Positions 358 to 35,706 of a DNA stretch of 64,000 nucleotides are shown one piece after another. Source of the stretch: Candidatus Poribacteria bacterium (GTDB lineage Bacteria; Poribacteria; WGA-4E; WGA-3G); the NCBI GenBank assembly GCA_022822085.1, contig JAJECK010000127.1:1-64000 (forward strand), written 5' to 3'. Both the position numbers and the translations under genes were made by a program. The first letter of the stretch is position 1. Every line of letters begins with the position of its first letter. Under the pieces are notes generated by a model that did not search any database, had not been told where the DNA came from, and worked only from the letters and a program-made list of their open reading frames with translations.

Positions 358-386
358 TTGCATGCCCTATAGAAACGTGGTATAAT
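358..386 (+). promoter_or_regulatory. Sigma-70-type promoter of rpsB
   Basis: TTGCAT (358-363) and TATAAT (381-386) are separated by 17 bases. Transcription would start near 393, giving a leader of about 155 nucleotides before rpsB. Confidence 0.75.
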
Positions 387-432: not shown

Positions 433-530
433 CACCTCCAGATTTGCACGGCGGGTTCTCTCATCATGAGAGTCCGATGCAAACATGAAGGAGGTGGACG
501 TATAAACCCGATGAGGAGTAGAACTCCTCA
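433..530 (+). promoter_or_regulatory. Structured rpsB mRNA leader
   Basis: Nested complementary segments fold the leader. CACCTCC (433-439) pairs with GGAGGTG (490-496), TTTGCA (443-448) with TGCAAA (478-483), CGG (449-451) with CCG (474-476), and CTCTCAT (458-464) with ATGAGAG (66-72 of the 400s block, i.e. 466-472). A separate perfect hairpin, TGAGGAGT-AGA-ACTCCTCA (512-530), ends just before the AGGAGGT ribosome-binding site at 536-542. Ribosomal protein S2 operons are autoregulated through their leaders in other bacteria, so an S2-responsive leader is the natural reading. That role is inferred and not shown. Confidence 0.6.
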
Positions 531-547
531 ACCCCAGGAGGTAATTT

Positions 548-1429
548 TTGGCAGTTACAATGAAGGAACTCCTTGAATGTGGAGTCCACTTTGGGCACCA
601 AACAAGACGTTGGAACCCGAAGATGGCTGAGTATATCTTCGCTGAGCGTAATGGTATATATATCATAGATTTGCAGAAGACGCTAAATATGCTTGAAACT
701 GCGGTAGAATATGTCAAGAGTATTGCCGCAAATGGTGGAACGACTCTTTTTGTAGGAACAAAACGGCAATCTCAGGAAGCAGTTTTTGAGGAAGCAGTCC
801 GGTGTAGTATGTATTATGTCAATCACCGCTGGTTAGGTGGAATGTTGACAAACTTCCAAACAATCCGTCAAAGTATCAGCAGGTTGGAATCCCTTGAAGG
901 AGAAGAAACGAGCGGTGAACTTGAAAAACGCCCGAAAAAAGAGATAATTCGACTCAGACGGGAAAAAGGGAAATTATCTAATAACCTTACTGGCATCAAA
1001 GAGATGGCCACACTTCCCGAAGTCATTATTGTCACGGATACCCGAAAAGAACACACGGCAATAGCTGAAGCCAACAAACTCGGTATCCCGATCATAGCGA
1101 TCGTAGATACGAACTGCGATCCTGATCCTATTGACCTACCTATCCCCGGCAATGACGATGCTATCCGTTCCATTCGGTTGATCTGTTCTGTTTTGGCAGA
1201 AGCGGTCATAGAAGGACGCGGGGACGCATTAGAAGGCGAAGAAGTTGACGAACAAAAAGATCAAACTGAGGGGAGTCAGATTGATAAAGTTGCTGAAACT
1301 GAACGCCACGAGGAACAGACAGCACAAATAGTTGATGCTGAACAACTTTCTGCGGAACCGGAGGCAATCGGAGATAGTGAACAAAGGCGTGCGCGGCAAT
1401 CTCGACCAAAAAGAAGCCCGCGGCGATAA
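548..1429 (+). CDS. rpsB: 30S ribosomal protein S2
   Basis: This is ribosomal protein S2, a small-subunit component needed for assembly of S1 and S2 on the 30S particle. The N-terminus [20 protein letters not shown] is diagnostic, and the segments [12 protein letters not shown] and [13 protein letters not shown] follow in the usual places. The start is TTG at 548, six bases after AGGAGGT (536-542); an in-frame ATG four codons later has no comparable spacing. At 293 residues it is longer than the common 230-260. The excess is an acidic, Glu/Gln-rich tail from about residue 226 that ends in a basic RPKRSPRR. It heads the rpsB-tsf-frr group and is preceded by its own promoter and a structured leader. 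Confidence 0.97.
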
Positions 1430-35620: not shown

Positions 35621-35706
35621 TGCCGGGAAAGGGACTCGAACCCTCACGTGCAAATTGCACACTAGAACCTGAATCTAGCCTGTCTACCAAATTCCAGCAT
35701 CCCGGC
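35621..35706 (-). tRNA. tRNA-Leu (anticodon CAG)
   Basis: On the minus strand the acceptor stem GCCGGGA/TCCCGGC (7 bp), the D arm, the anticodon stem CTAGA/TCTAG with loop TTCAGGT (anticodon CAG), a long class II variable arm (GTGCAAATTGCAC type) and the T arm GAGGGTTCGAGTCCCTT are all present. The discriminator base is A, as expected for leucine. CCA is not encoded. Confidence 0.92.

What the first reader, a model, noticed from the sequence alone, without database searches (positions are those of the whole stretch)
433..542. Multi-stem leader ahead of rpsB
Four nested complementary pairs plus a separate perfect 8-bp hairpin precede the ribosome-binding site. The outer stem partly sequesters an internal GGAGGTG decoy. 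It looks like an autoregulatory S2 site of a form I do not recognise.
Basis: partly seen in the sequence, partly recalled or inferred. Interest (0 to 1): 0.5.

Follow-up and report, generated by a model that had tools for sequence, protein, structure and literature searches.

The report
S2 self-control RNA in sponge bacteria
The stretch before the gene for ribosomal protein S2 in this Poribacteria genome folds into a conserved pseudoknotted RNA that is a distant relative of the known S2 self-regulating leader of E. coli, so it is a new branch of a known kind of switch rather than a new kind.

Summary
In detail: four nested helices (433-496) and an 8-bp hairpin (512-530) precede the rpsB ribosome-binding site. 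The relatives are Candidatus Poribacteria (48 of 48 pattern loci). The architecture is that of the published rpsB motif, to which the E. coli S2 autoregulatory leader belongs. A covariance model built only from Poribacteria finds the E. coli rpsB leader at 32.8 bits; the next match in 150 kb of E. coli has 14.8. Rfam's t44 model finds 0 of 84 Poribacteria genomes. The hairpin is a covarying add-on of one Poribacteria family. The GGAGGTG "decoy" is the 3' strand of P1. Most likely mechanism, by homology: surplus S2 binds the leader and blocks initiation. Binding and repression are untested here. Verdict: a new member of a known kind, in a phylum not on the published list that I read.

The parts
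358..386 (+). Likely sigma-70 promoter: TTGCAT 358-363, 17-nt spacer, extended -10 TGG-TATAAT (378-386)
   Evidence: Read by eye; a TGGTATAAT-like block is kept in relatives (by eye). The consensus scan did not list it; by my count its -35 matches 3 of 6 and the scan asks for 4.
433..439 (+). P1 outer stem, 5' strand CACCUCC
   Evidence: Pairs with 490-496; 4 of 7 pairs have changes on both sides, 99.7% of cells paired
443..451 (+). P1 inner stem, 5' strand UUUGCA + CGG
   Evidence: Pairs with 474-476 and 478-483; 4 of 9 pairs with changes on both sides, 98.1% of cells paired
453..457 (+). Pseudoknot strand GGGUU (junction before P3)
   Evidence: Pairs with 505-509; 96.5% of cells paired; G-C becomes A-U in 5 distinct rows; the two U-A pairs fail in 3 and 4 rows
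458..472 (+). P3 hairpin CUCUC...GAGAG
   Evidence: 4 of 5 pairs with changes on both sides, 96.6% of cells paired
474..483 (+). P1 inner stem, 3' strand
490..496 (+).
   Evidence: All seven bases can pair with 433-439
494..509 (+). Conserved 3' block GUGGANG...AAACCC ending in the pseudoknot strand AACCC 505-509
   Evidence: E. coli has GUGGAGGCAUAACCCC at the same place
512..530 (+). Accessory hairpin, 8 bp, seen at this place in family f1 and not in f2-f4
   Evidence: Compensatory changes in the sister genus g2; absent in f2-f4 rows
536..542 (+). Shine-Dalgarno AGGAGGU of rpsB
   Evidence: GGAGG kept in the 33 f1 rows of A2
548..1429 (+). rpsB (ribosomal protein S2), UUG start
   Evidence: ORF; S2 match in 58 of 59 genomes, the window's own included; start codon comparison

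Best explanation
Window 433-509 is the Poribacteria version of the rpsB motif, the pseudoknotted leader RNA through which ribosomal protein S2 represses its own rpsB-tsf mRNA. The leader folds into a long two-part P1, a P3 hairpin, and a 5-bp pseudoknot between the junction (453-457) and the strand after P1 (505-509). When S2 is made in excess over 30S subunits, free S2 (in E. coli together with S1) binds this fold and blocks initiation at the SD, which begins 27 nt after the pseudoknot strand; this also lowers expression of the following tsf. Shown here: the fold, its compensatory changes, its position before rpsB and its homology to the E. coli leader. Inferred from E. coli: S2 binding, repression and the help of S1. 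Unknown also in E. coli: how a structure that does not include the SD blocks initiation.
For: Covariation: 97.9% of cells paired, 14 of 26 pairs with changes on both sides, 0 of 500 shuffles as high on either, at most 50.4% paired in slid registers. RNAalifold alone recovers the nested helices on 33 sequences. The pseudoknot changes G-C to A-U in 5 distinct rows and reads GCGGU/ACCGC in L049 (by eye). Model R1, built from Poribacteria only, matches 71 of 84 genomes of the phylum; 49 of 49 matches whose S2 coordinates I had lie 20-77 nt upstream on the same strand, and 48 of 48 named pattern loci have S2 just downstream. R1 finds the E. coli rpsB leader at 32.8 bits, E 1.1e-7, and it is the best match in 150 kb of E. 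coli, next 14.8 bits. The published motif has P1, short or absent P2, P3 and a pseudoknot from J2-3 to the 3' extension. S1 is encoded in the genome.
Against: Rfam's t44 model matches 0 of 84 Poribacteria genomes at E up to 0.001, and no Rfam family reaches E 10 in 250-700, so the homology shows in one direction only. No member outside Poribacteria except E. coli was tested. R1 misses 13 of 84 genomes; in 3 of these (G049, G053, G054) I see no such element before rpsB. One covariation measure, further pair types, is reached by 10 of 500 shuffles.
Confidence: 0.87

Rival explanations
1. Alternative-pairing switch: the P1 5' strand CACCUCC (433-439) pairs either with its SD-like partner GGAGGUG (490-496) or with the real SD (536-542), so the leader sequesters or frees the SD.
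For: In thermodynamic folds that cannot hold the pseudoknot, the SD pairs mostly with sequence more than 60 nt upstream in 12 of 49 leaders, for example L004, L006, L008 and L045. The SD-likeness of the P1 3' strand is common in f1, f2 and f4 (by eye).
Against: In the window's own leader that pairing has probability 0.0 while the P1 pairs have 0.89-0.99. The P1 strand of the E. coli member is not SD-like, though a GGAGG follows P1 there. If S2 stabilised P1 and the pseudoknot, this switch would activate, not repress.
Confidence: 0.06
2. A structured leader that serves mRNA stability or ribosome standby, with no S2 binding.
For: Conserved 5' structures can protect mRNA (general knowledge); no binding was tested here.
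Against: Sequence conservation in junction and flank (GGGU, GUGGA, AAACCC) and homology to a leader with published S2 repression point to a protein-binding site.
Confidence: 0.05
3. A transcription attenuator whose terminator is 524-540 plus the following U-run.
For: The scan lists a terminator-like site at 524-540; 2 such sites in the stretch against a shuffle mean of 0.3.
Against: It has 5 pairs only, overlaps the SD, competes with the perfect hairpin 512-530 (pair probabilities 0.81-1.0), and its T-run is the SD-to-start spacer.
Confidence: 0.02

Closest known systems
rpsB motif (Meyer et al. 2009, PMC2704228; section 6 and passages read, figure not seen)
   Same: Position before rpsB; long P1; P2 short or absent; P3; 5-bp pseudoknot from the junction to the strand after P1.
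   Different: Found in Poribacteria, a phylum not in that section's list (marine metagenomes, Alpha-, Gamma-, few Beta-, Delta-, Epsilonproteobacteria, Cyanobacteria, some Firmicutes). Family f1 adds a hairpin between the pseudoknot strand and the SD.
E. coli rpsB leader, tff / t44 RNA (Rfam RF00127)
   Same: Same order of helices and pseudoknot (GGGGU/ACCCC) and the block GUGGAGGCAUAACCCC; found by the Poribacteria model R1.
   Different: P1 strand not SD-like, with GGAGG directly after it; AUG start; no accessory hairpin; the t44 model matches 0 of 84 Poribacteria genomes.

Membership tests
rpsB motif (S2 leader) | Lies in the 5' UTR of rpsB | tested here: met
   TTG start of S2 at 548; 49 of 49 R1 matches compared lie 20-77 nt before the S2 match
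rpsB motif (S2 leader) | Long P1 with covariation | tested here: met
   16 pairs in two helices, 8 with changes on both sides
rpsB motif (S2 leader) | P2 short or absent, P3 present | tested here: met
   No P2 seen, which the paper allows; P3 has 5 pairs, 96.6% of cells paired, 4 of 5 with changes on both sides
rpsB motif (S2 leader) | Pseudoknot between the junction and the strand after P1, five pairs outside Firmicutes | tested here: met
   5 pairs, 96.5% of cells paired, A-U for G-C in 5 distinct rows
rpsB motif (S2 leader) | Sequence and structure homology to a known member | tested here: met
   R1 finds the E. coli leader, 32.8 bits, E 1.3e-6 in 214 kb; only this one outside member was tested
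rpsB motif (S2 leader) | Bound by S2 and repressed by it | not testable with these tools
Rfam RF00127 (t44) as modelled | Score above the gathering threshold of 44 bits | tested here: not met
   0 of 84 genomes, while the E. coli leader scores 83.5 bits; so not filed under this model

The most novel reading that the evidence does not exclude
In family f1 the accessory covarying hairpin, the SD-like P1 strand and the UUG start form a lineage-specific expression platform: the leader exchanges the CACCUCC strand between its SD-like partner and the true SD, so that S2 control works by SD occlusion, unlike E. coli, where the SD is outside the operator.
Probability: 0.1. Interest if true: 0.4.

Novelty: new member of a known kind. 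Interest (0 to 1): 0.22.

Why it matters
It carries the S2 leader to Poribacteria, known as mostly uncultured sponge-associated bacteria (recalled), and gives an alignment that reaches E. coli where the Rfam model does not reach back. That supports an old, widely shared S2 control element and shows which positions (GGGU, GUGGA, AACCC) are constrained in both. It also shows that this RNA is missed by the Rfam model in this phylum.

Tried and rejected
Rfam at gathering level on the whole window gave only a tRNA at 35621-35706, and nothing at E up to 10 on 250-700. Repeat or mobile origin: the only other match of the leader in its genome is 24 bases at E 0.44. Leader peptide: an ATG at 511 opens a short frame, but it is missing in relatives such as L004 (by eye). 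Second copy of AACCC before the SD as an alternative pseudoknot partner: kept in most g1 rows but in few g2 rows (by eye). Terminator: see rivals. The single weak extra R1 match (G018, 28 bits) lies inside a long open reading frame, so I treat it as chance.

Rows left out: A1 has 46 sequences. A3 has 45, because L011 was dropped for an insertion of two bases; L037, L043, L049, L051, L053, L054, L055, L059 and L060 were left out beforehand, and L056-L058 did not match my start-of-S2 expression. A2 holds 33 of the 34 f1 rows printed (L035 left out). In A3 three rows (L042, L050, L052) are shifted by one or two columns at the pseudoknot strand, which accounts for some of its unpaired or gapped cells. 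One search used 24 loci, all of genus g2; two g3 loci with two hairpins (L035, L037) were skipped, and two further g2 loci (L081, L086) did not match its expression. In one search the script took a wrong start for some rows (L017, L018, L021, L023, L077, L090). One search's expressions failed on several rows, and I do not use its tally. A5 misaligns the E. coli row, and I do not use it.

Full report
What is there. The window begins with the leader of an rpsB-tsf operon. The fold is more stable than shuffles (z -2.76). The MFE and centroid structures contain the outer stem, the inner stem and the hairpin 512-530; the P3 register competes with an alternative that uses GGGUU (P3 pair probability 0.48-0.49). 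That conflict resolves if GGGUU pairs elsewhere.

Relatives. An S2 search found a match in 58 of 59 genomes, the window's own and 58 relatives. Reading the DNA before S2 showed a leader with the same core in genus g1, in other genera of family f1, and in families f2, f3 and f4. A pattern from the core, scanned once over the collection of named species genomes, gave 48 stretches, all with Poribacteria in the title, and all 48 have S2 just downstream.

Structure. On alignment A3 (45 rows, 41 distinct) I tested the structure P1 outer, P1 inner, P3 and a pseudoknot 453-457/505-509. 97.9% of 1061 cells are standard pairs, against 93.7% when 3' letters are shuffled and at most 50.4% in slid registers. 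14 of 26 pairs show changes on both sides (shuffle mean 6.2, 0 of 500 as high), as do 54 cells (shuffle mean 14.1). The weakest measure, further pair types, is reached by 10 of 500 shuffles. Related sequences can inflate such shuffles; by the tool's own statement the measures that count pairs or types suffer least. The pseudoknot helix is 96.5% paired; its outer pair is G-C in 32 rows, A-U in 5, G-U in 1 and gapped in 3, and its two U-A pairs fail in 3 and 4 rows. In the more distant L049 the two strands read GCGGU and ACCGC, a double change (by eye). RNAalifold, given 33 f1 rows, predicts the same nested helices without being told.

Distribution. Model R1 (83 positions, nested pairs only) matches 71 of 84 genomes of the phylum at E up to 0.001. 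For 49 of those 71 I had S2 coordinates, and 49 of 49 lie 20-77 nt upstream on the same strand. For 11 more the locus was checked. The remaining 11 were not checked one by one. The 13 misses: in G067 and G052 no S2 was found; G055 has S2 only as a fragment at a contig end; G043 is split by an insertion; G041, G059 and G060 do match when their loci are searched directly, at 27.5, 31.6 and 38.6 bits; G056, G057 and G058 give only 10-12 bits (E 0.18-0.48), though I see P1-like and GGGU/ACCC-like strands by eye; G049, G053 and G054 show nothing I recognise.

Identity. The published rpsB motif has a long P1, a short or absent P2, a P3, and a pseudoknot between J2-3 and the 3' extension following P1 (PMC2704228, section 6 read). 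E. coli has CACACGUAUC...GGGGU...GAUACGUGGAGGCAUAACCCC before rpsB, in the element annotated tff/T44 and its 3' neighbourhood. R1, built without any E. coli sequence, finds it at 32.8 bits, E 1.1e-7 in 19 kb, and as best match in 150 kb of E. coli with E 1.3e-6, the next E. coli match being 14.8 bits. Across the 84 Poribacteria genomes the only match away from rpsB that I identified scored 28 bits and lies in a reading frame. Rfam's t44 model recognises E. coli (83.5 bits) but no Poribacteria genome at E up to 0.001 (0 of 84). Of its 14 control genomes it rings in two, E. coli and Thermotoga maritima, one of them over the cut-off; that one is E. coli.

Mechanism. In E. coli, S2 in excess represses rpsB translation through this leader, needs S1 to do so effectively, and the SD is outside the operator; the mechanistic details are unclear (PMC10931766, section 12 read; of the primary papers it cites for this, those I looked up are not held). 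The same is the most likely action here; the genome encodes S1. In folds without the pseudoknot the SD of the window's leader is mostly paired with downstream sequence (0.76-0.86 for 536-540) and not with P1 or the hairpin. The SD-like P1 strand could allow strand exchange with the real SD in some relatives (12 of 49 leaders by a coarse measure), but not in the window's own leader. E. coli's P1 strand is not SD-like, though a GGAGG follows it directly.

Lineage-specific parts. The hairpin 512-530 sits between the pseudoknot strand and the SD. In genus g2, with fixed registers, 24 loci give 20 distinct arm pairs, 98.1% paired (shuffled mean 83.4%, maximum 91.3%), with 33 doubly changed cells (shuffled mean 11.4, maximum 24 in 1000); slid registers give 39-55%. 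It is absent in the f2, f3 and f4 rows. The distant L139 has a hairpin at the same place (by eye). By in-frame codon and SD spacing, the start codon of rpsB is UUG in 68 and GUG in 2 of 70 Poribacteria leaders, never AUG, although an in-frame AUG follows within 4-7 codons. tsf starts with AUG in 98 of 98 loci where my expression found it, some of which repeat genomes. UUG is not rare in the window: 8 of 28 ORFs with a nearby SD by a rough rule, 15 further ORFs having none.

A natural disruption. In G043 an insertion separates CACACTTCTTGATTTACAGA from the rest of the leader by about 400 nt. The remaining part changed at 6 of 65 positions fixed in five sister leaders, among them both pseudoknot strands and the GUGGA block, while sisters held against the other four changed at 1-4 positions of 66-69. 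The first 240 bases compared of its rpsB are not unusually diverged (4 of 192, sisters 1-12 of 193-204). This is one case and only suggestive.

Print. Library searches: 'rpsB motif' occurs in one held paper, Meyer 2009. Seven papers hold both 'Poribacteria' and 'rpsB', with rpsB once or twice each; I saw only that listing, and none of the titles concerns leader RNAs. Searches listed nothing that joins the two either (listings only, capped). Fu et al. 2013 and Aseev et al. 2008 are not held, so this is not proof of absence. Verdict: real, well supported, and a new member of a known kind.

Noticed in passing
window 548-550 and 70 Poribacteria leaders: rpsB starts with UUG in 68 of 70 and GUG in 2 of 70 leaders, never AUG, despite an in-frame AUG 4-7 codons later; tsf starts with AUG in 98 of 98 loci where it was found.
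   Followed up: partly
L142 (G043:C1:2229400-2231400): About 400 nt, with palindromic stretches near its ends and its own -10-like box and SD (by eye), is inserted inside the leader and splits P1; conserved pseudoknot and GUGGA positions differ from sister leaders.
   Followed up: partly
L037 (G019) and L035 (G021): G019 carries some 60 extra nt in the P3 loop with the core intact; both genomes have a second hairpin (CATAG...CTATG) directly before the SD.
   Followed up: no
genus g2 leaders, e.g. L021-L032: A further upstream stem-loop (for example CTGATGAA...TTCATCAG) lies between the promoter and P1 in many of them, seen by eye.
   Followed up: no
L056, L057, L059 (family f5): GC-rich leaders that look like strongly diverged forms of the same element but score only 10-12 bits with R1.
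   Followed up: partly
L058 (G053): rpsB is preceded by different hairpins (CTCCTCAGGAG; GGGCCCTCTCAGTGAGGGTCC) and not by this motif, by eye.
   Followed up: no
Rfam RF00127 control genomes: The t44 model also rings in Thermotoga maritima, apparently below its cut-off, hinting at a further phylum with the motif.
   Followed up: no
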